64,000 nt of DNA from Pseudomonadota bacterium (GTDB taxonomy: Bacteria > Pseudomonadota > Gammaproteobacteria > Burkholderiales > Methylophilaceae). The position numbers were made by a program, and so were the translations under genes. The stretch's first letter is position 1. Each line of letters begins with the position of its first letter. This document shows, piece after piece, positions 1,433-21,768 of this stretch. The DNA is taken from NCBI GenBank assembly GCA_029556915.1, contig JAKQIT010000077.1:1-64000 (forward strand), written 5' to 3'. The notes under the pieces are model-generated. The model worked only from the letters and a program-made list of their open reading frames with translations. It ran no database searches and had not been told where the DNA came from.

Positions 1433-1480
1433 TTGGCTCCTCGACCTGGGCTCGAACCAGGGACACACGGATTAACAGTC
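1433..1480. repeat. Left attachment repeat: 48-bp copy of the tRNA-Asn 3' part
   Basis: These 48 bases are identical to 21692-21739, the 3' part of tRNA-Asn from the anticodon arm to the CCA end. Identity stops at 1481 (G here, C in the intact gene), so only a partial tRNA is present. It is the displaced tRNA end produced by site-specific integration. Confidence 0.93.
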
Positions 1481-1625: not shown

Positions 1626-3722
1626 TTAACTAAGAGCGTTGACAAACTTATCACACTCATCAATCACGTACTGCGGCACAACTGGAAACTTTGTTGGATT
1701 TAGCTGATATATAGAATTATTCTCTATGTGAAAAGCTTCATTTATGAATTTTTGAATAACCAATGATTCAATATCTAGTTCTTTATCATCAAAGATGATT
1801 CTGTAGATATGCAGCTTTTCATAATTATTGGTAGTCGCTTCATATAGGCTCTTCATAGCTGCATCATCAACAGTTAAATTTAATAACGCCGGGTAATCAA
1901 AAGTAAGTAATTTTTCTTTAATTCCGTCAATTCCTGAGTTAATTTCCTCGGGGGTCATTTCTCGAAGAACGCCAGAATCGTGAAGCGTTAATTGACTACG
2001 CTTATGAAATAAATTTGATAAAACAGCAAACTCGAGTTTTTTATTATTTGTTACCTCATAATAACGTCTCAAATAAACTAGCTTGTTAAGCTCTCCTATT
2101 GGCAGATTTAGATTTTCAAGGTGAATATCAATGAAAGATTTAACATCTGTTTTTGCAATCTCTTTCTCAGATAACACTGACTTATTATTCTCAATAAAAG
2201 TAGCAAAAGGCTTTTCAAAACGATCAGTATGCTGATAAATCATATCAACAACTGGATCAAAATCATGTGTTAGTAAAAGTACAGTTTTCCCTCGGAACGA
2301 ATTATTAGCGCGGAAAAGCATATCTACAATTGCGTACTTTTTATTTTTATCGAATGACGAAATAGGATCATCCAAAATAATTAAATCTGGAGAGGCTTTC
2401 AATGCGTCAAACATAAACAAGACTAAAGCAAATGCATTGCGCTCCCCGAAACTTAGGTGTGACTTGGCTTCACCTACATCAGCTGTTGCGTCAAGGTGTA
2501 TCAATTTAAGCTTGTGCTTACCTTGGCCGTCTTCTACCAAGTTTACGTTGTATCTATATCCTGCGTTTCTCAGAAATGCATTTATTTGTAGGCAATTCTC
2601 TTTTACTAATTTTTCTATCAAAGCTTTTTGCTTATTGATACACCCCTGTAATTCACCAGCCTCTTTGAGCACCTCATCAATAGCATTGTTTACAATATCT
2701 ACCTTTTCTTTTGTAACTTTTGAGTTAAGGTGATGATAGAGACCTATATCAATTTTATACCCCTTCAGCTCATCCATCACTTTATCTACATCTTTCAGCG
2801 ATAAGAAACCAAGCTGCTGTGCTTTCAAAAATTTACCATTAAGAAGCCCAATTTGATTATTAACCTCTCTGAAGTACTCTACTTGATCATCAGAATAACC
2901 ATCTACATTTGCGACAAACTCGTTAATTTTGTTTTTAGTATCATCAGAAAAGTAGTTGCTTAGTCTCTTAAACACACTAACCAATTTATTCAAATTTTGA
3001 ATATTTTTTGGTTCATAAACTTCACTGACTTTTTTTATCGTTTCTTTCTTATCTTGGATATCGTTAGTACAGTATGGGCAGTCAGTAGAAACATCAAGGT
3101 AGCTTTTGCCGTCAATCTGCCACTGCATCCATTTGTAATTTTCTGGATGTTGAATGTAACTTTTATATCCCTCCAAACCTAGAGGGATATGTTGCATTTT
3201 ATTGCCACCCTTTAAAGCCTTAGCAACATTACTGCTTCCATGAATTCCTGTCTTAGTTGGTTTTCCGAAATTTGAACTAAGCTCATTAAAGTCAGCTATT
3301 AATGCAGTTATTTCTTGGTCTGCAGCTAACATTTTCTTTATGGTGTCTACTCGTTGCTCTATCTCCTTAAGTCCCTCATCATATTTATCATTACGAATAA
3401 ATATATCAAAGCTACCCTTGAGAAGATCATCAGTCTGAAACACAAATTCGCTAATGTAACTCTCATCAAACACTTTTACACTTGCTATTGAGTCGGCTCC
3501 ATTTACTGTTGGTTTTTTAGTTTCATCAATTAGATGCTTAAATGGCTTTAGTTTAAGCAACTCATTGCCACCGTTTTTCTTATCAGAAACTGCGGCACAG
3601 ATAGCTTTAGAAATCGTACTCTTACCTGTACCATTGATAGCATATTTGATGTTTAGTAAACCATCTTTAATTTCTACGGTTCCTTGATCGATGTTATTAC
3701 AATTTAAAATATCAATTATCAT
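1626..3722 (-). CDS. AAA_13-family ATPase, RloC/PrrC-like; predicted defence protein
   Basis: The protein is 698 residues from the ATG at 3722, which has GGAAA about 7 nt upstream; a longer frame to 3791 lacks a ribosome-binding site. It has the split ABC/SMC-type ATPase layout. Walker A is NGTGKST near residues 30-36, a long helical insert carries CPYC at 215-218, the ABC signature LSFGE is near 423, and Walker B LIILDDPISSFD is near 447. This is the AAA_13 layout, which includes the anticodon nucleases PrrC and RloC; RloC has a Cys-x-x-Cys zinc hook in its coiled coil. I cannot confirm the nuclease triad in the C-terminal 200 residues. Their most conserved-looking segment (NEAFHIEN) may belong to another effector type. 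The gene is divergent from the Fic gene across a large palindrome. Confidence 0.65.
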   Translation of the reverse strand: MIIDILNCNNIDQGTVEIKDGLLNIKYAINGTGKSTISKAICAAVSDKKNGGNELLKLKPFKHLIDETKKPTVNGADSIASVKVFDESYISEFVFQTDDLLKGSFDIFIRNDKYDEGLKEIEQRVDTIKKMLAADQEITALIADFNELSSNFGKPTKTGIHGSSNVAKALKGGNKMQHIPLGLEGYKSYIQHPENYKWMQWQIDGKSYLDVSTDCPYCTNDIQDKKETIKKVSEVYEPKNIQNLNKLVSVFKRLSNYFSDDTKNKINEFVANVDGYSDDQVEYFREVNNQIGLLNGKFLKAQQLGFLSLKDVDKVMDELKGYKIDIGLYHHLNSKVTKEKVDIVNNAIDEVLKEAGELQGCINKQKALIEKLVKENCLQINAFLRNAGYRYNVNLVEDGQGKHKLKLIHLDATADVGEAKSHLSFGERNAFALVLFMFDALKASPDLIILDDPISSFDKNKKYAIVDMLFRANNSFRGKTVLLLTHDFDPVVDMIYQHTDRFEKPFATFIENNKSVLSEKEIAKTDVKSFIDIHLENLNLPIGELNKLVYLRRYYEVTNNKKLEFAVLSNLFHKRSQLTLHDSGVLREMTPEEINSGIDGIKEKLLTFDYPALLNLTVDDAAMKSLYEATTNNYEKLHIYRIIFDDKELDIESLVIQKFINEAFHIENNSIYQLNPTKFPVVPQYVIDECDKFVNALS

Positions 3723-3803
3723 TTTTATTTCCGAAGATTTTAAAAGTCTAACAATTACAACATAAAAATAAGCCGCCAAACTATCCGCCAAACGACCCGC
3801 CAG

Positions 3804-3880: not shown

Positions 3881-5104
3881 ATGAATACTAAGGTAATCCG
3901 CACACCTCCTGCTACTAATATTGCTCAAATGGAGCCGATGCTACCTCAAGCAAGAGAGACTGATAAGCTACTATCCCTTGCCAGCGAATTACGTGAAAAA
4001 GCTATCAAGCTGACGGCAAATCCTCTGCCAGGACTAAACAAAAGCCTATCCATCATTTTGCGGGCAATGAACTCATACTACACTAACAAGATAGAGGGTC
4101 AGCACACTCTACCAGCGGATATCGAATCTGCTCTCAACAACCAATACTCCAACAATCAAGATATCGCCCGTAAACAGCGTATAGCTAAAGCTCACCTTTT
4201 AACCGAGGCTTGGGGTGAAGATTACATCGCAGATAAAACTTGGCGTGAGGTCTACTGCTCCGATTTAATCACAGATATTCATTACCAGCTTTACAGTTAC
4301 ATGGATGAAGCCGATCGCGTTGCAGAGAACAACGAGCCTGTCAATGAAGGGAAATTCAGAACTCAAAATGTGACTGTTGGAATACACATGCCTCCAGATG
4401 CAAAGCATCTACCCAGCTTTATTGAACGATGGATTCAAGCTTACAGCAAGCTACCTGATGGGGATATGGCACTAATTGGTTTCGCATGCTCTCACCATAG
4501 ACTTGCTTGGATTCACCCTTTTAATGATGGTAATGGGAGAGTAACGAGGTTACACAGCCACTTGCTACTCCACTCAATGGGCTTGACTAGTGGTTTATGG
4601 TCACCTATGCGAGGCTTAGCACGCACGCACCAACAATATTATGCGCATCTACACAACGCAGATAATTTAAGAAATGGTGACTATGACGGAAGAGGTGCGC
4701 TCACAGAACAAGGTCTAGTTGAATGGATTCAATACTTCTTACGTATCTGTATTGACCAAGTAACATTCATGGAAAGCATGCTTAAGTTGACTGACTTTAA
4801 AGACCGTTTGGGAACATTGTTGTTGGTTGAAGAGAAAAAAGGAAAGTCAGGCTTAAAAACAGAAGCGCTCATACCATTGCATTACATTGCGATTACTGGC
4901 CCTATTGAACGTGGAGAGTTTAAAAAAATGACAGGGATGGCTGAGCGCTCTGCCGAGCGCCTTTTAAAAGCATTACTTGATTACAAACTATTGCTTTCCG
5001 ACTCACCTAAAGGAAAAGTCTATATAGGTATACCTTTGCATAGCCTACAATTTCTATTTCCTAAACTCTGGCCAGAGGCTGAGTCCGAGAATTTGAATAA
5101 CTAA
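3881..5104 (+). CDS. Fic-domain protein, putative AMP-transferase with N-terminal inhibitory motif
   Basis: This 407-residue protein carries the complete Fic active-site motif HPFNDGNGRVTR at residues 212-223: catalytic His, phosphate-binding GNGR and the final Arg. Fic enzymes usually transfer AMP from ATP to a hydroxyl group of a target protein. Residues 68-73 (TNKIEG) fit the inhibitory helix motif (S/T)xxxE(G/N), placed N-terminal to the Fic core as in class II Fic proteins, so it should be self-inhibited through Glu72. The C-terminal ~100 residues look like a winged helix (MTGMAERSAERLLKALLDY). It is first in a run of same-strand genes, 22 bp before the STAND gene. It could be a regulator, a toxin-type effector or part of the defence cargo. 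Confidence 0.9.
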   Translation: MNTKVIRTPPATNIAQMEPMLPQARETDKLLSLASELREKAIKLTANPLPGLNKSLSIILRAMNSYYTNKIEGQHTLPADIESALNNQYSNNQDIARKQRIAKAHLLTEAWGEDYIADKTWREVYCSDLITDIHYQLYSYMDEADRVAENNEPVNEGKFRTQNVTVGIHMPPDAKHLPSFIERWIQAYSKLPDGDMALIGFACSHHRLAWIHPFNDGNGRVTRLHSHLLLHSMGLTSGLWSPMRGLARTHQQYYAHLHNADNLRNGDYDGRGALTEQGLVEWIQYFLRICIDQVTFMESMLKLTDFKDRLGTLLLVEEKKGKSGLKTEALIPLHYIAITGPIERGEFKKMTGMAERSAERLLKALLDYKLLLSDSPKGKVYIGIPLHSLQFLFPKLWPEAESENLNN

Positions 5105-5126
5105 AAAAATCAAAAAGGATTATTCA

Positions 5127-8100
5127 TTGGCAATTAATTGGCAAGACATCAAATCGTTTAATGGCTCTCAAAATAATGCTTTTGAAGAACTCGTTTGTCA
5201 GCTAGCAAGAGAAGAGTCTCTTCCTAATTTAGCAAGCTTTACTAGGGTTGCAGCTCCTGACGGAGGGGTTGAAGCTTATTGGCAATTAGAAAGTGGTGAA
5301 GAGCACGGATGGCAAGCTAAGTACTTTTCAAGTATGGGTGACTCTCAATGGTCACAGTTAAAAAAGTCTTTTGAAACCACGCTTAAAACTCATCCCAAGT
5401 TAACCAAATACTTTATCTGTATACCATTAGATCGCCAAGACCCTAGAATTGAAAACCAAAATTGGTTTATGGATAAATGGAACAAGCACACAAAGACTTG
5501 GATAGCAGATGCTAAAAAAATTGGACGAAATATTACTTTCGAATACTGGGGAAGCTCTGAGTTAATACATCGTTTATCGCAAGAGAAGCATGCTGGCAGA
5601 GGGCTATTCTGGTTTTCAAAAGAAGAATTTACGGATGAATGGTTCAAAACTCAACTTGAAAATAGCATTTTAAATCTAGGGCATCGCTACACCCCTGAGC
5701 TTAATTTCGAACTAATCATATCAAAACAATTTGACAGTATGAGCAGAAATGACGGTTTTCGAGATTACTTCAAGGCTGAGGTTCACAAATTTCTAAAGCC
5801 TTTTAACAAACTAGATTCAAATTTTCTAAAACAGCCTGATGTATCTAATTTAAAGCTATTACTAGACACTCAGTTTGATCTATCTCAGAAAAAAGGGATT
5901 GCAAAGCTTGAAATTCAAAAATTAAATGAGAACTTGGTCCTCATACAGAAGCTCCTCAGTCAGCATGCAGACAGCCTTAGAGCTGAAGCTAAAAAAACCT
6001 CAAAAGATTCCGTCCAATTTGAAAAACATAACACTGACATCGCTTTCGATGCGTTGTATACATTCAAACACTTTATAAGTGGGTCTTTATTAAAACTCGC
6101 CAATTCACCAGTAATGTTGCTCACTGGTGAAGCTGGTATTGGTAAATCTCATTTGTTAGCTGATATAGCCATGAGTAGAGTTAGTAAAAACCAAGCCTGC
6201 ATATTGCTTCTTGGACAACACTTCAGCAATGATGACCCGCCCTGGACTCAAATACTAAGAAATTTATTACGAGTTAATTGTAATGAAGCAGAACTACTTG
6301 GGGCACTCAATGCAAAGGCTGAGGCTCAAGGAGAGAGGCTTCTATTTATTATTGATGCGATTAATGAAGGTAGAGGGCGCTACTTTTGGAAGAACCATAT
6401 CAGATCATTTATAAAGGACTTCTCAAAATATCCATGGTTAGGCCTAGTGTTAAGCATTAGATCTTCATACGAAGAACTGTTGGCCTCTGAAAAAACAATT
6501 CCACAACAAGAAGCTGTGAGAATAGCGCATTACGGATTTGATGGGGTTGAGTATCAAGCTTCAAGCTTTTATTTTAAGCGGTATGGGATTGAACAACCAA
6601 ACAGCCCATTACTTCGCCCTGAGTTTGGCAACCCACTATTTTTAAAATTATTTTGTGAGGGGCTAGCAAGATCGAATCAAAAAAGCATCCCCAAGGGCTA
6701 TGGAGGAATCAGCACTATTCTCGATTTCTTTCTAACAAGTGCCGATGAAAAACTGTCTGAGCCTTCTTATTATGATTACCAACCAGCCTCAAGTAAAAAA
6801 TTAGTACGCAAAGTCATTAATGAATTAATTAAATTCAAATTAGATAAAAACCTTAGTTACATTCCTTATGAAAGTGCCGTTGAACTAGCCAATACAATTG
6901 TCTCAACATATAGTCAGAAGAGAGGCTTTATAGATTCACTCATCTCTGAAGGCGTGCTATCCAAAAATCTTTATTGGGATAATGGCGAAAATTTCGAAGG
7001 TGTTTACTTTGCTTACGAACGATTTGAGGACCATTTAACGGTTGATTACTTATTAACGTCTCAACTTGAAAATCATAGCCCAGAAAGTTTATTTAAAACT
7101 AATGGGAGTTTTAAAAAATACTTTCTGTACGAATATCAATATCAAGGTTTAGTTGAAGCACTTTCGATTCAACTTCCCGAAAAGGCCGATAAGGAGCTAT
7201 ACGAACTAATTGATGAGGAAAGCAAGTCAAAACGTTCAATTATTGAAGCTTTTATTCAAAGTCTCGTTTGGAGAAAGCCAGAGTCAATCAAACTCAAAAC
7301 AAAACAATATATAGATAAAAACATATTAAATAATCAAGATGGTTTTACTTTATTCTTTGAAATGCTTTATTCCGTCGCAGCTGAACCTGAACATATCTAT
7401 AACGCAAATTTTCTGCATCAATATCTTTATCCATTATCGATGGCCGATCGAGATGCTGTTTGGACGACGTTTCTACATGATATGAGTTTTGAAGAGTCAT
7501 CAATAAATAGACTTATTGAATGGACTTATCAATTACAATCCGACATTAATCACAACTTGAATAATGAATCTGTTTTACTGGCGAGTAAAGCTATTGCATG
7601 GCTTTTTGTATCCACCAATATTAAATTTAGAGATACCGCAACAAAAGGGTTGGTTTGTTTACTCATCAATAATATTCCAGTAGCAAAACTGCTACTTAAA
7701 GAGTTCTCTGCTATAAATGACCCTTACGTTTACGAGCGTATCTTGGCTGCCATTTATGGCGCCATTCTTAACTCAGACAATATTGAAGGCCTTGGTGACT
7801 TAGCCAAATATATTACTCAAAGTGTATTTGAGCAAGAGGAAGTTTACCCTAATGTGCTAGTCCGAGACTACGCGAGAAATATTGTTGAATATGCCCTGTA
7901 TAAACAAGAATTCGAGTTAAAAAATCCCAAAACTATTAGGCCGCCATACAATAGTAAATTCCCAGATGCATTTCCGACCAATGAAGAAATCGATTCATAT
8001 AAATTCGAATCTCCGTCAAAGGACTCCAGAGAACAGTGGGGGCAAAATGCAATTTTAAGATCAATGATCACAGAATATGGCAGAGGTATCTGTTCGTATG

Positions 8101-9341
8101 GAGATTTTGGTAGATATACATTCCAAAGCGACCTTTATCATTGGAGCTACAAATTTGATCCCAACGATTTGAGCAACTATGCCTGTAAACTAATATTTGA
8201 TAAGTACCGATATGATGTTAAAAAACATGGTTATTTTGATGTCAATGCTAGTGGCGGAGATAGGCAAAGAAATAAAGTTGAGCGTATAGGTAAGAAGTAT
8301 CAATGGATAGCGCTGTATGAGGTTTTAGCAAGGCTTTCTGATAATTTTGAAATGCAAGACCCTTCAAGCGGTTGGAATAAAGAGAAAAATTACATTTGGT
8401 ATCAAGGTTCATGGGATCCATCTGTTAGGAATATAGACCCTACCTTAATTACCTATTCTCTTAAAACAGTTCAAAATGACCGTGATCACTCCTGGTTGAG
8501 AAAAATTGAATATAAATCTTGGGAGGGGTCTACTAAGAACTGGCTGGTAAGCACTAACAACCTACCAAACCCTAAAGACATCATCTCTCTCAAAGATCCT
8601 AAAGGTGAAGAGTGGATTCTTTTAGAGACACATTTGAGATGGGATGAACCCGTACCTATTGGATATGAGGATTATGAACACCCCCATAAGCACCTTAGTT
8701 ACGGTATTCAAAGTTACTTTACTCCATCTGAGCAAGTCGAAAAAGTGGTTGACTGGGTTAAGCGAAAGGGTTTTGGTCAATGGTTGCCTCATAGTTCTGA
8801 CCAATACCAAATCTTTTCACGTGAATACTATTGGTCCGCGGCTTATAAATACTTTGATAACCCATATTATGGAAGGACATTATGGGAGGCGGTAGAAGGT
8901 GATGATGCACACTCAAACCTAGGTTCAGTGATGGTTACAACTGAAAGCCATAATTGGGAATCTAACTCTATCGATAGTGAGGTTAACTCCTATATGGCTC
9001 CTAGAGAATTTATGTTTCATAGCCTTGGACTAGAATATTCAAAATTGATTGGGGAGTGGACAAATAGCGTAGGGGAAACTATTTGTTTTGACCCATCAGT
9101 GAATCGCTCTGGAATACAAGCACTCGTGATTAGAAAAGATGCCTTGTTAAAGTTTTTAGCTGAAAATAATTTAGATGTATTTTGGACGTGTTTGGGCGAA
9201 AAAAACATTCATGGTAACGGATTCACTTCTAAGTCTGAAGAAATAAGTCGATGGTTAGAGCTTTCAGGCGTCTTTACATTTAAAGCTAATCAATTAGTTG
9301 GCGACCTAGTTACCAGAATTAGAAAGCCTAGCAGCAGATAA
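5127..9341 (+). CDS. Nuclease-STAND NTPase, Avs-like antiviral sensor candidate
   Basis: The product is 1404 residues. Translation probably starts at TTG 5127, with AAAAGGA seven bases upstream. The N-terminus looks like a PD-(D/E)xK nuclease of the Mrr/Cap4 type: E20, then DGGVEAYW at 45-52 and QAK at 63-65. The central NTPase has Walker A GEAGIGKS at 334-341, Walker B ending in DAINEG at 410-415, and a sensor-like LVLSIRSS strand. Roughly 700 C-terminal residues are large, Trp/Tyr-rich and without a motif I recognise, which suits a sensor domain. This order (nuclease, STAND NTPase, long C-terminal sensor) is that of the antiviral Avs proteins, and the nuclease type is closest to Avs4-like forms. 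The subtype is inference. It is followed after only 6 bp by a HEPN-like gene. Confidence 0.7.
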   Translation: MAINWQDIKSFNGSQNNAFEELVCQLAREESLPNLASFTRVAAPDGGVEAYWQLESGEEHGWQAKYFSSMGDSQWSQLKKSFETTLKTHPKLTKYFICIPLDRQDPRIENQNWFMDKWNKHTKTWIADAKKIGRNITFEYWGSSELIHRLSQEKHAGRGLFWFSKEEFTDEWFKTQLENSILNLGHRYTPELNFELIISKQFDSMSRNDGFRDYFKAEVHKFLKPFNKLDSNFLKQPDVSNLKLLLDTQFDLSQKKGIAKLEIQKLNENLVLIQKLLSQHADSLRAEAKKTSKDSVQFEKHNTDIAFDALYTFKHFISGSLLKLANSPVMLLTGEAGIGKSHLLADIAMSRVSKNQACILLLGQHFSNDDPPWTQILRNLLRVNCNEAELLGALNAKAEAQGERLLFIIDAINEGRGRYFWKNHIRSFIKDFSKYPWLGLVLSIRSSYEELLASEKTIPQQEAVRIAHYGFDGVEYQASSFYFKRYGIEQPNSPLLRPEFGNPLFLKLFCEGLARSNQKSIPKGYGGISTILDFFLTSADEKLSEPSYYDYQPASSKKLVRKVINELIKFKLDKNLSYIPYESAVELANTIVSTYSQKRGFIDSLISEGVLSKNLYWDNGENFEGVYFAYERFEDHLTVDYLLTSQLENHSPESLFKTNGSFKKYFLYEYQYQGLVEALSIQLPEKADKELYELIDEESKSKRSIIEAFIQSLVWRKPESIKLKTKQYIDKNILNNQDGFTLFFEMLYSVAAEPEHIYNANFLHQYLYPLSMADRDAVWTTFLHDMSFEESSINRLIEWTYQLQSDINHNLNNESVLLASKAIAWLFVSTNIKFRDTATKGLVCLLINNIPVAKLLLKEFSAINDPYVYERILAAIYGAILNSDNIEGLGDLAKYITQSVFEQEEVYPNVLVRDYARNIVEYALYKQEFELKNPKTIRPPYNSKFPDAFPTNEEIDSYKFESPSKDSREQWGQNAILRSMITEYGRGICSYGDFGRYTFQSDLYHWSYKFDPNDLSNYACKLIFDKYRYDVKKHGYFDVNASGGDRQRNKVERIGKKYQWIALYEVLARLSDNFEMQDPSSGWNKEKNYIWYQGSWDPSVRNIDPTLITYSLKTVQNDRDHSWLRKIEYKSWEGSTKNWLVSTNNLPNPKDIISLKDPKGEEWILLETHLRWDEPVPIGYEDYEHPHKHLSYGIQSYFTPSEQVEKVVDWVKRKGFGQWLPHSSDQYQIFSREYYWSAAYKYFDNPYYGRTLWEAVEGDDAHSNLGSVMVTTESHNWESNSIDSEVNSYMAPREFMFHSLGLEYSKLIGEWTNSVGETICFDPSVNRSGIQALVIRKDALLKFLAENNLDVFWTCLGEKNIHGNGFTSKSEEISRWLELSGVFTFKANQLVGDLVTRIRKPSSR

Positions 9342-9347
9342 AATAAC

Positions 9348-9893
9348 ATGGAAGAGTTTAAATCCTTTGATACTTTACTAGAGGCTGATGAGCGTTGGAA
9401 ATGTTTTGCAACTCTCGGCACTACAACAAGTCTGCCCAAACCATACACTATTGAGGATATGTACATCTCAATTGAAAAAATAAAACTTAATGAAAATATA
9501 CCTGAAGATGTTAAAAGCCAATTTAACGTCGCAAAAATGCTAGGTGTTTACGCTTGGTTATATTATCCATTTCATCAAATGGCAGAATTAAAAGCATTTT
9601 CAACATTAGAAATGGGTTTACGCATTCGTTTCCCTCACATAAAAAACTTTAGCAGACTGCTATCTCATGCTGTTGAAAATGGTTTCATTAAAGATGCTGG
9701 CTTTAGCAATATTCAGCAAAGTCCAAATGACTCTATTTGCTACAGTAAAACATTGCCTGCACTTATTCCGTCGATAAGAAACGATTTAGCACACGGCACA
9801 ACTACACTGCATCCAGGCTCGTTATTCACAATAAATAACTGTGCCGAAATACTTAACCAGCTATTTCCTACTTCAAATCCTCCTAAGATTTAG
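9348..9893 (+). CDS. HEPN-like domain protein, candidate partner of the STAND nuclease
   Basis: This protein of 181 residues has a helical C-terminal half containing IRNDLAHG at 143-150. R144 and H149 fit the R-x(4)-H signature of HEPN ribonucleases and HEPN-type adaptors. The remainder shows no recognised domain; helices around LGVYAWLYYPFHQMAELKAF could form the bundle. The start lies 6 bp after the stop of the STAND gene, indicating co-translation and probably joint function. It might be an RNase effector, an antitoxin-like partner or a structural subunit. The R-x(4)-H match alone cannot tell active from inactive HEPN proteins. Confidence 0.55.
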   Translation: MEEFKSFDTLLEADERWKCFATLGTTTSLPKPYTIEDMYISIEKIKLNENIPEDVKSQFNVAKMLGVYAWLYYPFHQMAELKAFSTLEMGLRIRFPHIKNFSRLLSHAVENGFIKDAGFSNIQQSPNDSICYSKTLPALIPSIRNDLAHGTTTLHPGSLFTINNCAEILNQLFPTSNPPKI

Positions 9894-9931
9894 GTATATG
9901 ATAACTACTCCAATCAAGATGAATAATAAAA

Positions 9932-12679
9932 ATGACACTTAGCTGGAACGAAATCAAAACACGTGCAAATGCCTTTTCAAAACATTGGGCAGATGCAGCC
10001 AATGAAGATAGCCAAGCCAAACCGTTTCTGATCGACTTTTTTGAAATATTCGGTATTACCGATAAACGCGTAGCCACCTTTGAACATGCGGTCAAAAAGT
10101 ACGGTGGTAGAGATGGTTATGTCGATTTATTTTGGCCAGGTATCTTAGTCGTTGAAATGAAAAGTAAAGGCAAAAATCTTACCCGCGCTTTTGATCAAGC
10201 CATTGATTATTTTTCTGGCATTAAAGAGCGTGATTTGCCCCGCTATGTGTTAGTGAGTGACTTTCAACGATTTGAATTACATGATTTAACAACTAATACC
10301 ATTACTGAATTTGCTCTTAAAGACCTTTACAAGAACGTTAAATCGTTTGGATTTATTGCAGGTTATCAAACACAAGTTATTAAACCGCAAGACCCAATTA
10401 ACATCAAAGCCGCTGAGCGCATGGGCAAGCTGCATGATGCCCTTAAATCGGTTGGTTATGATGGACATGTATTAGAAGTCTACTTAGTGCGTTTACTCTT
10501 TTGCTTATTTGCAGAAGACACCACCATTTTCGAAAAAAGCCTGTTTCAAGACTATATAGAAAACAAAACTAAAGAAGACGGCAGTGATTTAGCGCACCAC
10601 ATTACCAGTTTGTTTTACGTGCTTAATACGCCCGAAAATAAACGTCTAAGCAACCTTGATGAAAGCCTAAACGCATTCCCTTATGTCAATGGTAGACTAT
10701 TTGAAGAGAACCTACCGCCCGCACAGTTTGATAGCAAAATGCGTGAAGCGTTATTGGATTTATGTGCATTGGATTGGAGCATCATCTCCCCAGCTATCTT
10801 TGGTAGCTTATTCCAAAGCATCATGGATGCAAAAGCACGCAGAAATTTAGGCGCGCATTACACCAGCGAAGAAAACATTCTTAAACTGATTAAGCCTCTC
10901 TTTTTAGATGCACTCTGGGCAGAGTTTGAAAAAGTAAAAGGCAACAAAAAACGTCTGCAAGAATTTCATCAAAAACTACGCACGCTTAACTTTTTTGATC
11001 CTGCCTGTGGTTGTGGTAACTTTTTAGTGATTACTTATCGAGAGTTACGCCTACTAGAGCTAGAAGTATTACGCGCTACCCATAAAACAGGCCAGTTAGT
11101 GATGGATGTGCAGGCACTGATTAATGTCGATGTTGACCAATTTTATGGTATCGAGATTGAAGAGTTTCCTGCGCAAATTGCGCAAGTGGCGTTATGGCTC
11201 ACCGATCATCAAATGAATATGCGAGTTTCTGAAGAGTTTGGCGCTTACTTCGCGCGTATTCCACTCAAAGCGACACCCCATATTACTTGCGCTAACGCCC
11301 TGCAAACCGATTGGGAAAGTATATTGTCTGCGCAAAAATGCAGTTATATTTTGGGGAATCCTCCGTTTTTGGGGAAAAGCAATCAATCTGCCGCACAAAA
11401 AGCTGATATGCAGTTAGTTTGCAGCAACATAAAGAGTGCTGGCTTGTTGGATTTTGTAGCAGCTTGGTATATCAAAGCTGCACGTTATATGCAGATTAAC
11501 AATACGATTAAATGCGCATTTGTCTCTACCAACAGCATTACGCAAGGCGAACAAGTTAGTGTACTTTGGGGTTGGATGCTCGCGCAAGGCATTAAAATGA
11601 ACTTTGCACACCGCACTTTTAGCTGGAGCAATGAGGCGCGTGGCAAAGCCGCTGTACACTGTGTCATTATTGGCTTTGGTTTACAGGATATTCATGAGAA
11701 ATGGATATATGAATATGAAGATATTCAAGGGGAACCTCACGTAGTTAAAGTTAAAAATATCAATCCATATTTGGTAGATGCGCCCGATTTAATTTTAAGT
11801 AAGTCGCGTAAACCTATTTGCCAAGTTCCAGAAATGGCTTACGGAAGCAAACCTACGGATGGGGGACATTTATTATTTACAGAAGCTGAAATGTTTGATT
11901 TTATTAAGATTGAACCACTGTCTAAAGAATTTATTAGGCCCTTCATCGGCTCAGAAGAGCTAATAAATGAAAATGGTAGGTACTGCTTATGGCTAAAAGA
12001 TATAAGCCCCCAAATTATTCGACAAATGCCAAATGTGATGAAACGAATAGAGTCTGTACGTCAAATGAGAATGGAAAGTACGAAGTTACCTACTCAGGCA
12101 TTAGCGGCCACCCCAACTATTTTTGGTGAACTGAGACAACCAACAACTGATTACCTAGCCATACCAGAGACATCTTCTGAAAATCGTCAATTCGTACCAA
12201 TTAGGTTTTTAAGTAAGGAAATTATTGCAAGCAATTCGATGTACACAATTCAAGATGCAAATATTTATTCATTTGGTTTACTTTGCTCAAACATGCATAT
12301 GGCCTGGATGCGAACTTTATGCGGTCGCTTAGAAAGTCGATACCGTTATTCTGCTAGTTTAGTTTACAATAATTTCCCTTGGCCTGAACCAACTGAAAAA
12401 CAACAGTTAGCCATTGAAGTTGCTGCCCAAGCGGTGCTTGATGCGCGAGCAACTCAGCCTAACGCTAGCTTGGCCGACTTATATGATCCTCTGACCATGC
12501 CAGCCAATTTATTGAAAGCACACCAAACGCTAGATAAAGCAGTCGATGCTGCCTATGGCTACAAAGGCGTGAACACTGATGCCGCACGCGTAGCATTTTT
12601 ATTCGAACATTATCAAAAAATCACCTCACTACTACCTACAGAACAAAAGAAGAAAACTAAGAAAGGTAAAAAACGTTGA
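9932..12679 (+). CDS. MmeI-like single-chain restriction-modification enzyme (type IIL/IIG)
   Basis: The protein has 915 residues. The N-terminal domain fits a PD-(D/E)xK nuclease (D65 in GYVDLFWPG, E75 and K77 in VVEMKSK). A helical linker and an N6-adenine methyltransferase core follow, with motif I DPACGCGNF at 356-364 and motif IV NPPF at 476-479. The C-terminal ~350 residues would hold the target-recognition and helical spacer regions. This nuclease-methylase-specificity fusion is the MmeI family, which both methylates one strand and cleaves DNA. Start ATG 9932 is 38 bp after the HEPN gene. The last residues are Lys-rich, and the stop overlaps the next start. The recognition sequence cannot be read from this sequence. 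Confidence 0.82.
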   Translation: MTLSWNEIKTRANAFSKHWADAANEDSQAKPFLIDFFEIFGITDKRVATFEHAVKKYGGRDGYVDLFWPGILVVEMKSKGKNLTRAFDQAIDYFSGIKERDLPRYVLVSDFQRFELHDLTTNTITEFALKDLYKNVKSFGFIAGYQTQVIKPQDPINIKAAERMGKLHDALKSVGYDGHVLEVYLVRLLFCLFAEDTTIFEKSLFQDYIENKTKEDGSDLAHHITSLFYVLNTPENKRLSNLDESLNAFPYVNGRLFEENLPPAQFDSKMREALLDLCALDWSIISPAIFGSLFQSIMDAKARRNLGAHYTSEENILKLIKPLFLDALWAEFEKVKGNKKRLQEFHQKLRTLNFFDPACGCGNFLVITYRELRLLELEVLRATHKTGQLVMDVQALINVDVDQFYGIEIEEFPAQIAQVALWLTDHQMNMRVSEEFGAYFARIPLKATPHITCANALQTDWESILSAQKCSYILGNPPFLGKSNQSAAQKADMQLVCSNIKSAGLLDFVAAWYIKAARYMQINNTIKCAFVSTNSITQGEQVSVLWGWMLAQGIKMNFAHRTFSWSNEARGKAAVHCVIIGFGLQDIHEKWIYEYEDIQGEPHVVKVKNINPYLVDAPDLILSKSRKPICQVPEMAYGSKPTDGGHLLFTEAEMFDFIKIEPLSKEFIRPFIGSEELINENGRYCLWLKDISPQIIRQMPNVMKRIESVRQMRMESTKLPTQALAATPTIFGELRQPTTDYLAIPETSSENRQFVPIRFLSKEIIASNSMYTIQDANIYSFGLLCSNMHMAWMRTLCGRLESRYRYSASLVYNNFPWPEPTEKQQLAIEVAAQAVLDARATQPNASLADLYDPLTMPANLLKAHQTLDKAVDAAYGYKGVNTDAARVAFLFEHYQKITSLLPTEQKKKTKKGKKR

Positions 12680-13446
12680 TGCCCAATATTTTAGGTATGT
12701 TTCTAGAAAAGCTGTGGTGGTTACTCCCCTTATTGATCATCGTCTCTACGCTTAAAACCCCTTGGTTTAAAGGCTTATTTGGTGAATGGTTAGTTAAGAT
12801 TTCTGCGAAGTATCTACTTGATAAAGAGATTTATCACGCTATCCATAATGTAACGCTAGAGACTCCTGACGGTACAACGCAGATTGACCATGTGTTTGTT
12901 TCTCAGTATGGTATTTTTGTTGTCGAAACCAAGAACTATACAGGCTGGATTTTTGGTAGCGAGCATCAGCCAACGTGGACACAGAAAATATATAAGACCT
13001 CGCACAAGTTTCAAAACCCACTACGCCAAAACTATAAACATTTAAAAGCATTAGAAGCAGCACTTGATATACCCATTGATAAACTTCACTCTGTGATTGT
13101 ATTTGTAGGGGGCAGTACTTTTAAAACTGACATGCCAGCCAATGTGACATACGCAGGTGGCTATATTCGTTATATTAAATTATTCACTTCACCTGTCATT
13201 ACTGAGCCAGAACTGCAAATGACATTAAGCTTGATTCAAACCAAACGACTCAAGCCTTCATTTAAAACAAACCGAGAACACGTTAAAAATGTGCAAGTAA
13301 GGCTAGACCCTACAGCAGCAAAACTTTGCCCTAAATGCGGTAGCGATATGATTTTAAGAACCACTAAATCTGGTGGCAATATAGGTAAACAGTTTTGGGG
13401 ATGTTCGCAGTTTCCAAATTGTAGATCATTTCAGCCCTTAGTTTAG
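12679..13446 (+). CDS. NERD-domain protein with C-terminal topoisomerase-type zinc finger
   Basis: The protein is 255 residues from ATG 12679, whose A is the last base of the preceding TGA; TTG 12676 is an alternative start. An N-terminal hydrophobic segment (LWWLLPLLIIVST) is followed by a NERD (nuclease-related) domain: TQIDHVFVSQYGIFVVETKNYTGWI carries the Asp and Glu-x-Lys expected of this PD-(D/E)xK relative. A C4 zinc ribbon closes the protein (CPKCG ... FWGCSQFPNC), as in the DNA-binding tail of topoisomerase I. NERD proteins are frequent in mobile and defence islands, but their substrate is poorly defined. Tight coupling to the restriction enzyme suggests it is the last gene of the cargo operon. 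Confidence 0.85.
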   Translation: MPNILGMFLEKLWWLLPLLIIVSTLKTPWFKGLFGEWLVKISAKYLLDKEIYHAIHNVTLETPDGTTQIDHVFVSQYGIFVVETKNYTGWIFGSEHQPTWTQKIYKTSHKFQNPLRQNYKHLKALEAALDIPIDKLHSVIVFVGGSTFKTDMPANVTYAGGYIRYIKLFTSPVITEPELQMTLSLIQTKRLKPSFKTNREHVKNVQVRLDPTAAKLCPKCGSDMILRTTKSGGNIGKQFWGCSQFPNCRSFQPLV

Positions 13447-14007
13447 ATAGTACTAGATGTATTACCTGAAGCTAAACAAATCATGTCGTCACGATCATTT
13501 GGTGCGCGCGTAAGCGATATTTCCGATTTAACTGAAGCAGTGACTTACCACGCCACAAATGCAGCTCACAGGCTTCGGAATAAAGGCTTATTTACGCAAG
13601 CAGTGTATGTGTTCATTCAAAACAGCCCGTTTGACCAGGCGCAGTTTTATAGCGCTAGTTTATCGGTCGCATTACCTTCACCCACCGATTGCACCTTGAA
13701 AATTACTAATGCTGCACTATGGCTGCTTAAAAGAATATTCAAGCAGGGGATTTATTTTCAGAAATGCGGGGTAATGCTAATGGAATTGATGCCTGAAGGT
13801 GGTCAGCAAATAGATCTGTTCGGATACTCTGCAAACGAGCCTAAGTCTATTAATCTTATGGCTGCTATGGATCGAATTAACAAAAAATACTCTAAAGGCA
13901 CTATTAAGCTTGCTTCTGAAGGTGTTGATAAAGCCTGGGCGATGAATCGTAACTTTAAGAGCCCTAACTATACGGGTAGCTGGAAGGAGTTGCCTGTTAT
14001 TGGATAA
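13447..14007 (+). pseudogene. umuC: C-terminal remnant of UmuC (DNA polymerase V subunit)
   Basis: The frame is open from directly after the NERD stop and encodes about 186 residues. The first internal ATG is at 13483. KQIMSSRSFGARV, the YHATNAAHRLR segment, the KCGVMLMELMPEG segment, QIDLFGY and the end NRNFKSPNYTGSW align with the little-finger region and tail (DUF4113) of UmuC. The catalytic palm and fingers of a ~420-residue UmuC are missing, and umuD is absent. In-frame reading from the first base after the NERD stop suggests a deletion or recombination junction at about 13447. A functional polymerase is impossible; a small beta-clamp-binding peptide cannot be excluded. Confidence 0.85.
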
Positions 14008-15141: not shown

Positions 15142-15672
15142 TTAATTTGCGCACCATGCCTTTTGTGATGATCTTACTAAGTCATCTATTCGATCATCGG
15201 TCTGCTGTATGGCGCTTTGTAGCTCATTAAGAATCTCCATTTTTACTCGATCTGTTTCATAGAAGTTCTCGTTCAGGGCTTTTGCGATCTGGTTCACATT
15301 TCTGCCGATGGCCAACAGATTTCTATTGCTCTCTCTAAGTGCACTAACTTCATCTTGAACCACGACTGGATGACCAAGAACGTGTGACTGAATCAGAGCA
15401 GCAATCCAACGGCCTAAACGCATCCCTTTGGATTTTGCTCGTTCGATAGCGGCCTGCTTGATGTATTGAGGCAATAGAGTAGGCGTGTAAACCAAGTCCA
15501 GATTTTCGCCCTTCGGTTTCTGTACAGGTTTCAGATTTAACCCAACCTGACTCAATCCCTCGATGATAAAAAAGCGAATCAACTCTGATTCTTTTACGTC
15601 CGTCAGAGTAGAAATTTCCCTCAATCTAGCCTTGAGTTCTGGGTCTACTCTTACTGATAAAAACTGTGACAT
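15142..15672 (-). CDS. mobC: MobC-like relaxosome accessory protein
   Basis: This 176-residue protein has an N-terminal ribbon-helix-helix-type segment (FLSVRVDPELKARLREI ... ESELIRFFI). The C-terminal part has the mobilisation signature NRNLLAIGRNVNQIAKALN of MobC-type relaxosome proteins, followed by a helical tail. MobC proteins bind oriT and help the relaxase open DNA at the nick site. The upstream DNA (15673-16093) contains two oriT-like repeats and phased TACTACA boxes, likely targets. A relaxase gene normally follows; here a lipoprotein gene and gene remnants follow instead. Confidence 0.75.
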   Translation of the reverse strand: MSQFLSVRVDPELKARLREISTLTDVKESELIRFFIIEGLSQVGLNLKPVQKPKGENLDLVYTPTLLPQYIKQAAIERAKSKGMRLGRWIAALIQSHVLGHPVVVQDEVSALRESNRNLLAIGRNVNQIAKALNENFYETDRVKMEILNELQSAIQQTDDRIDDLVRSSQKAWCAN

Positions 15673-16093: not shown

Positions 16094-16762
16094 TCAAAAT
16101 CTCGGCGCCTCGCCGTGTAATGCTTTTAAGCTAATCTCTTTTGCCCTTTGGTTTGCCATTTCATTTTGGGCTTGAGCTAATTGTGAAAGCATCATGAGTT
16201 TGGTTTGCTCGTTTTGCATCATTACTTGTTCGGCCTGAATACGCGCCTGCAACTCTGCTACATCCTTTGCATCTGGCGTTTGATCTAACTTGTCTAACAG
16301 CACTTGAATTGTGTCGAACCGTTGTGAAGCTTGCGCATACCCAGCCTCTGCCATTGCACGATTGATTGCTACTTGATTAGCGTTGGATTCAAACGCTTTT
16401 GCTGCATCACTATTTGGATTCAATGACGTGTTTTCGATACCCATTAATTTGGCCGCAGATCGAATTGAAGCCCAGTTACCATACCCATTATTCAGTATGC
16501 TTTGATAATCGGCAGGTAAGTATTTGCGTAATGCAGGGTTATTCACCAATGAAGCCATCCCCCGAATGCCATTCAAGCTGTTAAAAGTAGTTTGGAGCTG
16601 TTGGTACTGTTGCTGCATTTGTTGGAACTGTTGCCCCCATGCTGCCACCTGTTGGATTTGTTGTGCTAAGTTCGTTGCATCTATTACAGGAATACCTGCC
16701 TGTACATTTAAGTTGAAGCACAACCCCATAGTGATGAGGAATTTGTAGATCATTTTTTTCAT
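16094..16762 (-). CDS. virB5: VirB5-family type IV secretion pilus-tip protein
   Basis: The protein has 222 residues, with a signal peptide (KFLITMGLCFNLNVQA) then GIPVIDATNLAQQIQQVAAW. This mature N-terminus and the Gln-rich helix after it (QQFQQMQQQYQQL) are typical of VirB5. A coiled region LQARIQAEQVMMQNEQTKLMML closes the fold. VirB5 is a minor pilus component at the tip of the conjugative pilus. It is encoded 15 bp downstream of virB6 on the same strand, the usual pairing. No other mating-channel genes (virB4, virB8-virB11) are present in the element. Confidence 0.8.
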   Translation of the reverse strand: MKKMIYKFLITMGLCFNLNVQAGIPVIDATNLAQQIQQVAAWGQQFQQMQQQYQQLQTTFNSLNGIRGMASLVNNPALRKYLPADYQSILNNGYGNWASIRSAAKLMGIENTSLNPNSDAAKAFESNANQVAINRAMAEAGYAQASQRFDTIQVLLDKLDQTPDAKDVAELQARIQAEQVMMQNEQTKLMMLSQLAQAQNEMANQRAKEISLKALHGEAPRF

Positions 16763-16777
16763 TGTTATCTCCGTTGG

Positions 16778-17827
16778 TTAAAATCCATTACTATTACTTT
16801 CTAATCGCATTTCCTCTCTTTTCGCTTTCTTTTTAGCCTTCACACCTTCAGCCCACCGCTTGTTACTCTCTTTTTGTCTAGCTCGTCCACGTTTCTCACT
16901 TCGTGATTGGCCAGTAACAAAGTTTTTAGTGTTTCTGTATCCACCAGATAATTTATTAAGCGCTGCATTAACAAAACCCAAGGTTGAAATTGCAACACCA
17001 CCGGCTAGGCTGGATGCGATAGATGGAAGCTGCAATAGCACTAAAATAGCTACCGAACAAAGGAATATCATCGGAAATATCTGAGCATACTGAGGATCGC
17101 TGCCAGAGCCATTTAAACCAGTCACAGCATTCAAATAGGCTTGAATGATGCTAAAGAACATTTGCATAGAGGCTGCTGATAAAACGATTAAAAGCATGAA
17201 GTTGACACACTGACCTAGCCATTGCTCAAAAAAGCGCTTGGTGGGCTCAAAAATCACCAGTAAGATGAAAATTGGCCCTATCGCCAGTAGTAGAGCCAAG
17301 GCAAATTTCGAGAGTATTAGTAAAAAACCTCCGAAAGCAATCATCGCTGCTGAAACTAACCATATTAGCCATCCAGCAAGCACCATGCTGATATCTGGCC
17401 AGATACCAGGAGAGGTACTGGATTTTTCATTAAAGTGACTGCCTAACTCATATTGCTGAGTAAATAGCTCATCAAGAAAACTTCCGTTATTCCCGGTTGG
17501 TGGACTTCCTGCAACAACGGAAGCTAATGCATCAGGTGTGTTCCAAAGAAAATCAACAATGTAAGTTTGATATAGACCGAGTGATGTACTCAAACCTAAT
17601 ATGATACTCATACGAATAAAACGATTTACCGCATCTGTCACGGGCTCTTGGATAATACCCCTGAGCATGCTCCAACCCCAAAAGCAAACATAAATCACCA
17701 TAAGTTGAGTTCCTAGGCTAGATATTGATGCCATTACATTTTGAGAGGTTGTAGTAATGTATGTTGTGATTACTGCATCAACTTTGGTCATCGTATCTTC
17801 AACGAAGTGAAATTCAGGATTAGCCAT
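16778..17827 (-). CDS. virB6: VirB6/TrbL-family type IV secretion inner-membrane protein
   Basis: This 349-residue polytopic membrane protein has hydrophobic segments near residues 38-62, 72-100, 145-172, 174-200, 210-225 and 248-285. The loop KRFFEQWLGQCVNFMLLIVLS is the conserved VirB6/TrbL core. The tail is basic and cytosolic. VirB6 forms part of the inner-membrane channel for DNA transfer. Its start overlaps the stop of the upstream membrane gene by 8 bp, so the three genes 18140-16094 form one operon. Confidence 0.82.
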   Translation of the reverse strand: MANPEFHFVEDTMTKVDAVITTYITTTSQNVMASISSLGTQLMVIYVCFWGWSMLRGIIQEPVTDAVNRFIRMSIILGLSTSLGLYQTYIVDFLWNTPDALASVVAGSPPTGNNGSFLDELFTQQYELGSHFNEKSSTSPGIWPDISMVLAGWLIWLVSAAMIAFGGFLLILSKFALALLLAIGPIFILLVIFEPTKRFFEQWLGQCVNFMLLIVLSAASMQMFFSIIQAYLNAVTGLNGSGSDPQYAQIFPMIFLCSVAILVLLQLPSIASSLAGGVAISTLGFVNAALNKLSGGYRNTKNFVTGQSRSEKRGRARQKESNKRWAEGVKAKKKAKREEMRLESNSNGF

Positions 17828-18381: not shown

Positions 18382-19308
18382 CTAAAACCTTTCGACATGA
18401 ATCAATTCACCAACTATTTCCCAAGATTTTAAAAACTCAACTCGCATCAATTCGTTAAGCGCTTTCTTAACATTTTCTTTTAGATGTTTGTTCATTACAG
18501 TGGTCAAACCAGCGCCTTTTTTCAATGTAGATAGCTTAATGGGATATGGCTTTCGATGGCTTGCGTAATAGCCATGAAGCCATGTTGCAAGTCCCCTAGG
18601 TAGATCTAAACGCTGCTTCCATTCAATTTGCGTGTATTGCAAGTCTCCAAATAATCTTACTAACTCGGGAGCAAGCTCAACTTGATATTTTGCTAATGGC
18701 CTTTTTGTAACTTCATCACGCCATCTAAATCTTGGAATCATTGAAAGGCTGACACCTTCCTTCAGTCGATTAGAATATAGAGATAGTGCAGTTGCTTGCA
18801 TGCGAATCAAGCAACTTCTCAAACGGATATAACTATCTTTACAAATCGGCCAATTAATTGATTTACAAAACCCATAAGCCGTAAAGTCGATGGTTGCGCC
18901 TAAAGAACGCTCTTTGGATAAATGAATGAGTTGTAACCATACGGTTGCATCATCCTGACGTAGCTCCTCACCAGAGTAGGTTATTTGACCGTCACCAATA
19001 ATAGGCACGCAGAATTCTTTGTAGTTGCTACGAGGCTGATTCTGATTTTTAGCGTTAAATAGGGCAGAGTGCAGGAATTCATTGGGTAAGCACCTTACAG
19101 ATTCTGGCCATAGGGGTAATTGATTAACTATTACAGCAGGCAAAACAGGAAGTATTTTATCTTTGCGTGATTTACGTAAAAATGCTTCTGCAGCTTTTTT
19201 GGCTATGTTCGGAAATGGATGTAAATTTAGATTGCTAGTAATGGCTTGCAAACAACTATCCGCCTCGCTGAGGTCTTCGAATAGGGTAGAATGTTCAACA
19301 TGATTCAT
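18382..19308 (-). CDS. trfA: TrfA-family plasmid replication initiator
   Basis: The 308 residues align by eye with TrfA of IncP plasmid RK2. Shared segments include LPLWPESVRCLPNEFLHSALF, ITYSGEELRQDDATVWLQLIHL, the FTAYGFCKSINWP helix, YTQIEWKQR, and TWLHGYYASHRKPYPIKL. TrfA binds iterons as a monomer and recruits host DnaB and the beta clamp. Four iterons and a DnaA box lie just downstream, which explains where it would act. A replication initiator inside an integrated element implies a plasmid ancestor or replication after excision. Length is intermediate between the short and long TrfA forms. Confidence 0.88.
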   Translation of the reverse strand: MNHVEHSTLFEDLSEADSCLQAITSNLNLHPFPNIAKKAAEAFLRKSRKDKILPVLPAVIVNQLPLWPESVRCLPNEFLHSALFNAKNQNQPRSNYKEFCVPIIGDGQITYSGEELRQDDATVWLQLIHLSKERSLGATIDFTAYGFCKSINWPICKDSYIRLRSCLIRMQATALSLYSNRLKEGVSLSMIPRFRWRDEVTKRPLAKYQVELAPELVRLFGDLQYTQIEWKQRLDLPRGLATWLHGYYASHRKPYPIKLSTLKKGAGLTTVMNKHLKENVKKALNELMRVEFLKSWEIVGELIHVERF

Positions 19309-21581: not shown

Positions 21582-21616
21582 TTTTGTTCTAAATAAAAAG
21601 GTGTAAGATTGGTGAC

Positions 21617-21654
21617 TGTACCGAATTTGTACTTTTTGAGCAAAGTACAAAATG
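21617..21654. other. Putative integrase arm sites, right end
   Basis: TGTACC at 21617 and TGTACT at 21628 are 11 bp apart and match the pair at 1601 and 1612. An inverted copy, AAAGTACAAAATG, lies at 21642-21654. The site is between the integrase start and the tRNA, so binding could also repress int. Function is inferred. Confidence 0.5.
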
Positions 21655-21686
21655 AAAAAAGCCGCTGACATTGCTGTCAACGGCTT
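21655..21686 (-). terminator. Intrinsic terminator of tRNA-Asn
   Basis: On the minus strand the stem AAGCCGTTGACA / TGTCAGCGGCTT (12 bp with one wobble) and loop GCAA run into six T residues, six bases beyond the tRNA CCA end. It lies inside the element, which thus supplies its own tRNA terminator in place of the one displaced to 1394-1426. Confidence 0.8.
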
Positions 21687-21691
21687 GTATC

Positions 21692-21739
21692 TTGGCTCCT
21701 CGACCTGGGCTCGAACCAGGGACACACGGATTAACAGTC
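21692..21739. repeat. Right attachment repeat within tRNA-Asn
   Basis: This is identical over 48 bp to 1433-1480. It covers the 3' part of the tRNA from the anticodon arm through CCA, the preferred crossover region for tRNA-targeting integrases. The 5' part of the tRNA (21740-21768) is outside the repeat and marks the chromosomal side. Confidence 0.93.
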
Positions 21740-21768
21740 CGTTGCTCTACCGACTGAGCTATCGAGGA
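21693..21768 (-). tRNA. tRNA-Asn (anticodon GTT)
   Basis: This is a 76-nt tRNA with encoded CCA. The acceptor stem TCCTCGA pairs with TCGAGGA, the D-arm is AGCTCAGTCGGTAGAGCA, the anticodon loop CTGTTAA gives anticodon GTT, and the T-arm has GTTCGAGCC. The gene is intact and is the integration target of the island. A 9-bp inverted repeat (21781-21789 with 21811-21819) lies just upstream. Confidence 0.97.

What the first reader, a model, noticed from the sequence alone, without database searches (positions are those of the whole stretch)
3881..13446. Five-gene defence-type operon: Fic, nuclease-STAND, HEPN, MmeI-like R-M, NERD
Five same-strand genes with gaps of 22, 6 and 38 bp and one overlap combine functions usually found in separate systems. 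The 6-bp gap links a nuclease-STAND NTPase (Walker A 334-341, Walker B 410-415) with a HEPN-like protein (R144, H149). I do not know of a described system with this exact composition. It may be a two-gene system (STAND plus HEPN) beside unrelated defence genes, or one composite.
Basis: partly seen in the sequence, partly recalled or inferred. Interest (0 to 1): 0.8.

Follow-up and report, generated by a model that had tools for sequence, protein, structure and literature searches.

The report
Defence-gene cargo with an orphan HEPN
A mobile DNA element sitting in a tRNA gene carries several independent phage-defence genes in one row, including a known sensor (Avs2), a restriction enzyme and a small, undescribed predicted RNA-cutting protein; the row as a whole looks like a stack of known parts rather than a new machine.

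Summary
The five genes are real and lie as described. The 'nuclease-STAND' is Avs2, a known defence protein: it scores above NCBI's curated cut-off and matches a solved Avs2 over residues 168-1396 of 1404. The Fic, MmeI-type and NERD calls hold. The small protein is probably HEPN but fits no Pfam family. The STAND-HEPN pair does not recur: this HEPN family is absent from 24 of 24 Avs2-related stretches examined, and Avs2 from 46 of 46 other HEPN loci. MmeI relatives lack HEPN, Fic and NERD in 9 of 9 stretches. HEPN relatives do turn up in restriction-modification (R-M) loci, 10 of 39, four also with Fic. That exceeds the genome average but not, significantly, Avs2-centred loci. All are cargo of a 20.3-kb element bounded by 48-bp tRNA-Asn repeats. 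Best reading: accreted defences, with the HEPN a probable suicide RNase guarding an R-M enzyme (PrrC-like logic), as proposed in 2013 for HEPN + R-M + Fic/Doc neighbourhoods. New: one small HEPN family.

The parts
1433..1480 (.). distal 48-bp repeat (att site), exact copy of part of tRNA-Asn
   Evidence: exact repeat of 21692-21739
1626..3791 (-). AAA_13 / SMC-like ATPase, PADLOC candidate PDC-S06, divergent from the operon
   Evidence: 877.9 bits; PF13166 54.4 vs 36 bits
3881..5104 (+). Fic protein with HPFNDGNGRVTR core and TNKIEG (S/T-xxx-E-G) at residue 68; best PADLOC model SoFic, but far below NCBIfam's SoFic cut-off
5127..9341 (+). Avs2 (AVAST type 2): N-terminal nuclease-like region, STAND ATPase, C-terminal region
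9348..9893 (+). HEPN-like small protein, RNDLAH motif, no Pfam family above cut-off
9932..12679 (+). MmeI-type IIG restriction enzyme-methyltransferase
   Evidence: (PDLC03598 1259 bits)
12676..13446 (+). NERD nuclease-like protein with topoisomerase-type Zn ribbon
13483..14007 (+). 3' remnant of umuC (IMS_C + DUF4113)
15142..15672 (-). MobC/NikA-like mobilisation protein (MobC 24.5 vs 23.2 bits; NikA-like below cut-off)
16094..16762 (-). type IV secretion protein (PF07996; VirB5-type by recall)
16778..17827 (-). TrbL/VirB6 conjugal transfer protein
18382..19308 (-). TrfA replication initiator
20541..21725 (-). tyrosine integrase of the element
21692..21739 (.). tRNA-proximal 48-bp repeat (att site)
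21693..21768 (-). tRNA-Asn(gtt), insertion target

Best explanation
The operon is a stack of separate anti-phage genes accreted as cargo on a plasmid-derived integrative element in tRNA-Asn and probably co-transcribed. Avs2 is a stand-alone sensor-effector: by analogy with its family (recalled, not tested here) it binds a phage terminase, oligomerises and activates its N-terminal nuclease. The MmeI-type enzyme restricts unmodified DNA on its own. The HEPN is inferred to be an RNase that is held off while restriction works and shuts down translation when restriction is blocked, as PrrC does for its type I R-M system. Fic may add a protein-modifying toxin layer. NERD is an accessory nuclease of unknown target. 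Shown: the identities, the element, the lack of Avs2-HEPN linkage in the loci sampled, the repeated R-M/Fic neighbourhood of part of the HEPN family. Inferred: HEPN activity, its guard role, co-transcription and every phage effect.
For: Avs2 identity. HEPN family absent from 24 of 24 Avs2-related stretches; Avs2 absent from 46 of 46 other HEPN loci. MmeI relatives without HEPN, Fic, NERD or Avs2 in 9 of 9 stretches. HEPN relatives in R-M loci: 8 of 39 with type I hsd genes, plus L075 head-to-head with a true MmeI-type gene and L045 with an Eco57I/MmeI-like methyltransferase, so 10 of 39. In L044, L049, L058 and L060 the HEPN gene lies between hsdS and hsdM. Fic in 5 of 39, four of those five with R-M. 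Genome background predicts 0.19 N6_Mtase and 0.37 Fic hits for that much DNA; 7 loci with HsdM (8 with L045) and 5 with Fic were seen. The R-M label is scattered over a quick family tree (10 changes; 4 forced by well-supported branches). HEPN: R144, N145, H149 and G150 invariant in 37 of 37; AlphaFold model pLDDT 92.8; the best PDB matches, though weak, are mostly HEPN proteins. Element: 48-bp repeats, integrase, TrfA, T4SS and MobC-like genes. Prior proposal of HEPN + R-M + Doc as a layered defence: PMC3710099 (passages).
Against: The R-M linkage of the HEPN family is not significantly above that of Avs2-centred loci (10/39 vs 3/24, p 0.34; type I alone 8/39 vs 3/24, p 0.51; Fic 5/39 vs 0/24, p 0.15; 10/39 vs 4/24, p 0.54, if an annotated hsdM fragment in L139 is counted), so general defence-island clustering could explain it. 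29 of 39 HEPN loci show no R-M gene in the DNA held; 14 of the 46 HEPN stretches are shorter than 15 kb. The local Hsd and Fic models were built from proteins of the HEPN loci themselves, which favours finding them there. PDB fold matches are not significant (best E 0.42; HEPN entries TM 0.32-0.54, rmsd 8-13), and a better superposition (E 0.15, TM 0.53, rmsd 2.6) is to an unnamed viral protein. The 6-bp Avs2-HEPN spacing, with no obvious ribosome site before the HEPN ATG by eye, suggests translational coupling to Avs2 in this one genome.
Confidence: 0.68

Rival explanations
1. Avs2 and HEPN form a two-gene system in this lineage: HEPN is an extra effector that adds RNA cleavage to Avs2 after phage sensing.
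For: 6-bp gap, same strand; no obvious ribosome-binding site before the HEPN ATG by eye. Genes are known to be added to defence systems, including nuclease-protease pairs in AVAST (PMC12799240, passages read).
Against: 0 of 24 Avs2-related stretches carry this HEPN and 0 of 46 other HEPN loci carry Avs2. Genome G306 has members of both families on different contigs. The Avs2 has its own nuclease-like N-terminus (by eye).
Confidence: 0.1
2. Pure accident: five unrelated defence or toxin genes stacked by island recombination; HEPN has no functional tie to any neighbour.
For: Avs2, MmeI and HEPN relatives are found without the others elsewhere; R-M linkage of HEPN does not exceed that of Avs2 loci significantly; 29 of 39 HEPN loci have no R-M gene in the DNA held.
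Against: HEPN relatives lie between hsd genes in four loci and beside an MmeI-type gene in a Planctomycetota MAG, and the R-M-linked ones are scattered over the tree.
Confidence: 0.2
3. Fic and HEPN form a controlled toxin pair: Fic AMPylates the Ser/Thr next to the catalytic His and keeps the RNase off, as MNT enzymes do for other HEPN toxins (recalled).
For: Fic in 5 of 39 HEPN loci against 0.37 expected; it overlaps the HEPN gene by one base in L042; Ser/Thr follows HG in 35 of 37 members; PDB matches 1 and 4 are AMPylated HEPN toxins; Fic is commoner among the R-M-linked HEPN loci (4/10 vs 1/29, p 0.011, a test chosen after seeing the data).
Against: 34 of 39 loci have no Fic in the DNA held; the Fic proteins are of different kinds (200-407 aa); the Ser may be structural. 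Against Avs2 loci the Fic excess is not significant. No AMPylation was tested.
Confidence: 0.05

Closest known systems
Avs2 (AVAST type 2; NCBIfam NF041813; PDB 9o4e)
   Same: Whole-protein score above curated cut-off; aligns to 9o4e over residues 168-972 and 973-1396; Walker A/B present.
   Different: Phmmer did not align the N-terminal 167 residues with 9o4e, so the effector part may differ from that structure; PADLOC model PDLC02162 does cover 1-1394. Sits in a row with Fic, HEPN and MmeI.
R-M-linked HEPN proteins with Fic/Doc neighbours (PrrC/RloC-type neighbourhoods, PMC3710099)
   Same: HEPN motif, R-M genes and Fic in the same neighbourhood; mobile element.
   Different: Here the HEPN is a small solo protein with no Pfam family above cut-off, the R-M is a single-chain MmeI type, and Avs2 sits between Fic and HEPN.
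MmeI-type IIG enzymes (PADLOC REase_MTase_IIG)
   Same: All five MmeI Pfam domains, E-x-K, DPACG and NPPF motifs.
   Different: Downstream NERD and upstream HEPN, absent beside 9 of 9 relatives examined.

Membership tests
Avs2 | score above NCBIfam NF041813 cut-off (1000 bits) | tested here: met
   1258.9 bits
Avs2 | STAND ATPase with Walker A and B | tested here: met
   GEAGIGKS 334, LFIIDA 406; NACHT PF05729 27.3 vs 26.7 bits
Avs2 | large C-terminal region homologous to a solved Avs2 | tested here: met
   9o4e_A E 3.7e-236, two stretches reaching residue 1396
Avs2 | N-terminal nuclease with active site | tested here: inconclusive
   GGVEAYW...WQAKYF looks PD-(D/E)xK-like by eye; no Pfam nuclease hit at E 0.1
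Avs2 | activation by phage terminase | not testable with these tools
   needs experiment; feature recalled from the literature
HEPN superfamily | conserved R-x4-6-H motif | tested here: met
   R144 and H149 invariant in 37 of 37
HEPN superfamily | HEPN helical fold | tested here: inconclusive
   helical model, pLDDT 92.8; five of the seven best PDB matches are HEPN entries but none significant (best E 0.42); weak Pfam HEPN hits in some of 37 members
any described Pfam HEPN family | match above the family's cut-off | tested here: not met
   window protein: no HEPN family at E 1. Other members: HEPN_Apea in 6 of 37 (best E 0.0091), HEPN_RiboL-PSP in 3 (best E 0.0025), singles of others; cut-offs are not shown for these
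PrrC-type R-M guard | HEPN gene recurrently inside R-M operons | tested here: inconclusive
   R-M gene in 10 of 39 loci, well above genome average but not significantly above Avs2-centred loci
PrrC-type R-M guard | tRNA cleavage released when R-M is blocked | not testable with these tools
   experiment needed
MmeI type IIG | N-terminal nuclease, helical spacer, methylase, TRD and C domains in one chain | tested here: met
   all five Pfam domains above cut-off

The most novel reading that the evidence does not exclude
Fic and this HEPN family form an AMPylation-gated suicide RNase that guards R-M enzymes: Fic keeps HEPN off by modifying the conserved Ser/Thr next to the catalytic His, and phage attack on the R-M enzyme releases it. 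The window would be a single-chain (MmeI) version with Avs2 inserted between the two genes.
Probability: 0.06. Interest if true: 0.65.

Novelty: new member of a known kind. Interest (0 to 1): 0.3.

Why it matters
It shows that an apparently novel five-gene system is best read as an accretion of known modules on a tRNA-Asn element, and it isolates the one part without a family model: a small HEPN family with an invariant RN...HG motif that recurs in R-M and Fic neighbourhoods in several phyla (by the record titles) and is a cheap candidate for a PrrC-like guard RNase.

Tried and rejected
STAND-HEPN as a recurrent pair: tested from both sides and not found. MmeI + NERD or MmeI + HEPN as a fixed unit: not found beside 9 of 9 MmeI relatives with wide flanks. 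Viral carriage of HEPN: no confirmed relative in two viral-contig scans and none in phages by tblastn. The genome-contig scan with the Avs2 sequence found no relative. A related element in PLSDB: only a match of about 51 bases at the tRNA repeat, in one Variovorax plasmid. Promoter and terminator scans were uninformative (23 promoter-like sites vs 31.2 expected, 12 terminator-like vs 8.9). A link of HEPN with R-M beyond the defence-island background: not significant.

Rows dropped or limits: the HEPN census used the 39 loci plus L012, L013, L014, L016, L029, L031 and L032, with the window; L034 and L035 (weak or cut) were left out; L015 and L030 are the same loci as L042 and L062. L013 and L053 share flanks, and L065 and L069 are near copies. 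L067 and L075 had their HEPN ORF masked by a longer ORF and were re-examined; these two, L013, L032 and L078 are not in the tree or HMM. 14 of the 46 stretches are under 15 kb. The 24 Avs2-related stretches come from 13 of 58 plasmid records and 10 genomes; L019 and L020 lie on one contig, three are Moraxella plasmids, some Avs2 genes are split, and weaker genome hits (G029, G349, G515, G555) were not fetched with wide flanks. Observed hsd and Fic genes were found with local models built from the HEPN loci, while the background used Pfam families on other genomes, so the enrichment figures are rough. Genome sizes were typed as rounded there. The tree is a quick one, 16 of 39 inner branches open.

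Papers: PMC3710099 passages only; PMC12799240 passages only; others only as search listings. No paper holding both 'Avs2' and 'HEPN' is in the library searched. The terminase mechanism of Avs, the Fic inhibitory motif, MNT control of HEPN toxins and the VirB5 name are recalled.

Full report
Observation. The five + strand genes lie where stated, with gaps 22, 6 and 38 bp and a 4-bp (TTG start) or 1-bp (ATG start) overlap. Pfam, PADLOC and NCBIfam scans give Fic, Avs2, no family above cut-off for the 181-aa protein, an MmeI-type IIG enzyme with all five MmeI domains, and NERD with a zinc ribbon. Motifs expected of active enzymes are present in Fic (HPFNDGNGRVTR, and TNKIEG), Avs2 (GEAGIGKS), MmeI (E-x-K, DPACG, NPPF) and NERD (E-x-K).

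Surroundings. A divergent AAA_13 gene, a PADLOC candidate (PDC-S06, 877.9 bits), lies at 1626-3791. An exact 48-bp repeat at 1433-1480 and 21692-21739 is part of tRNA-Asn (21693-21768); an integrase lies beside it at 20541-21725, and between the repeats are MobC-like, T4SS (PF07996), TrbL/VirB6 and TrfA proteins. So the defence genes are cargo of a 20.3-kb plasmid-derived integrative element. A umuC 3' remnant directly follows NERD. No near copy of the element is in PLSDB.

The STAND is Avs2. NF041813 gives 1258.9 bits against a cut-off of 1000, PADLOC 1450 bits over 1-1394, and the solved Avs2 9o4e E 3.7e-236; the first 167 residues are not aligned to 9o4e. Relatives at E 0.001 or better were found in 5 of 274 class genomes and 10 of 349 phylum genomes, the own genome included in each; at E 1e-20 in 58 plasmids; with the NF041813 model at E 1e-30 in 2 of 289 genomes of another class. 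In 24 Avs2-related stretches (13 plasmid records, 11 stretches of 10 genomes) the HEPN HMM found nothing even at E 10; Fic and MmeI were not found either. The nearest relative by identity (54%, L018) has a UbiX-like gene downstream, by eye.

The HEPN. It has few relatives: 4 of 274 and 7 of 398 genomes, own genome included; 2 plasmids with the window protein, 13 with a longer member, 12 of them Streptomyces plasmids with partial matches; no phages; 39 loci in genome contigs. R144, N145, H149 and G150 are invariant in 37 of 37 aligned members, and Ser/Thr follows in 35 of 37. Some members touch Pfam HEPN families weakly (best E 0.0025). The AlphaFold model is confident (pLDDT 92.8). Five of its seven best PDB matches are HEPN entries (7ae6, 4nqf twice, 8xdj, and 1wwp, which PMC3710099 lists as HEPN-T), but none is significant (best E 0.42) and rmsd values are 8-13; ranks 5 and 6 are clamp-loader chains. 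Among viral models the best is an unnamed 310-aa protein (E 0.15, TM 0.53, rmsd 2.6). I take the protein as a HEPN family without a Pfam model, mainly on the motif.

HEPN neighbourhood. Avs2 is absent from all 46 other loci examined. Type I hsd genes are within the DNA held in 8 of 39 (L042, L043, L044, L046, L049, L058, L060, L071); L075 has a true MmeI-type gene head-to-head and L045 an Eco57I/MmeI-like methyltransferase. Outside those 39, L016 (25 bp after hsdR) and L029 also carry R-M genes. Fic is present in 5 of 39, four of them R-M loci. Against 86 N6_Mtase and 169 Fic matches in 294 Mb of 80 genomes, 0.19 and 0.37 were expected in 0.645 Mb; 7 loci with HsdM (8 with L045) and 5 with Fic were observed. 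The R-M label needs 10 changes on a quick tree, about as many as in shuffles (mean 10.6), with 4 forced by well-supported branches, so linkage was gained or lost repeatedly. Against this, Avs2-centred stretches also have type I R-M genes in 3 of 24 (4 if an annotated fragment in L139 is counted), and the difference is not significant (p 0.34 for any R-M, 0.51 for type I; 0.54 with L139). The linkage stands out against the genome, but is unproven against the defence-island background.

MmeI. At E 1e-30, 18 of 229 class genomes have a relative, the own genome included with a second copy (74% identity). In 9 stretches fetched with wide flanks (two of them under 15 kb) none has HEPN, Fic, NERD or Avs2 beside it.

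Reading. Avs2, MmeI and HEPN relatives occur without each other, so the operon is best seen as accreted defences. The HEPN most likely acts as a suicide RNase, and its best candidate partner is the R-M gene downstream rather than Avs2. This follows the proposal for HEPN + R-M + Doc neighbourhoods in PMC3710099 (passages). No activity was tested. The boldest open reading is a Fic-gated HEPN guard of R-M enzymes.

Noticed in passing
window 1433-1480 and 21692-21739: Exact 48-bp repeat from tRNA-Asn bounding a 20.3-kb integrative element with integrase, TrfA, T4SS, TrbL/VirB6 and MobC-like genes.
   Followed up: yes
window 13483-14007: 3' remnant of umuC directly after the NERD gene, suggesting that the defence cargo replaced or interrupted a umuC gene; Moraxella plasmid L039 also has a Y-family polymerase gene about 3.8 kb after its Avs2 relative.
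   Followed up: partly
window 124-735: N-terminal part of a second integrase (Arm-DNA-bind_2, SAM-like) just outside the distal repeat, perhaps another element's remnant.
   Followed up: no
G000 contig C16:123098-125854 (L111, L123): Second MmeI-type gene in the same genome, 74% identical, without HEPN, Fic or NERD beside it.
   Followed up: partly
L139 14218-14790: Another annotated HEPN-domain protein 1.7 kb after an Avs-like gene on a Vibrio harveyi plasmid, with a recombinase gene between; it does not match the HEPN family of the window.
   Followed up: partly
L019 and L020 (one contig): Two Avs2-like genes on one contig, the second followed after 65 bp by an HsdM-like gene of a type I-like R-M set.
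   Followed up: no
window 28724-34864: 2046-aa repeat-rich protein between an outer-membrane efflux-like protein, a membrane-fusion-like protein and an ABC exporter-like gene: looks like a type I-secreted adhesin set (by eye).
   Followed up: no
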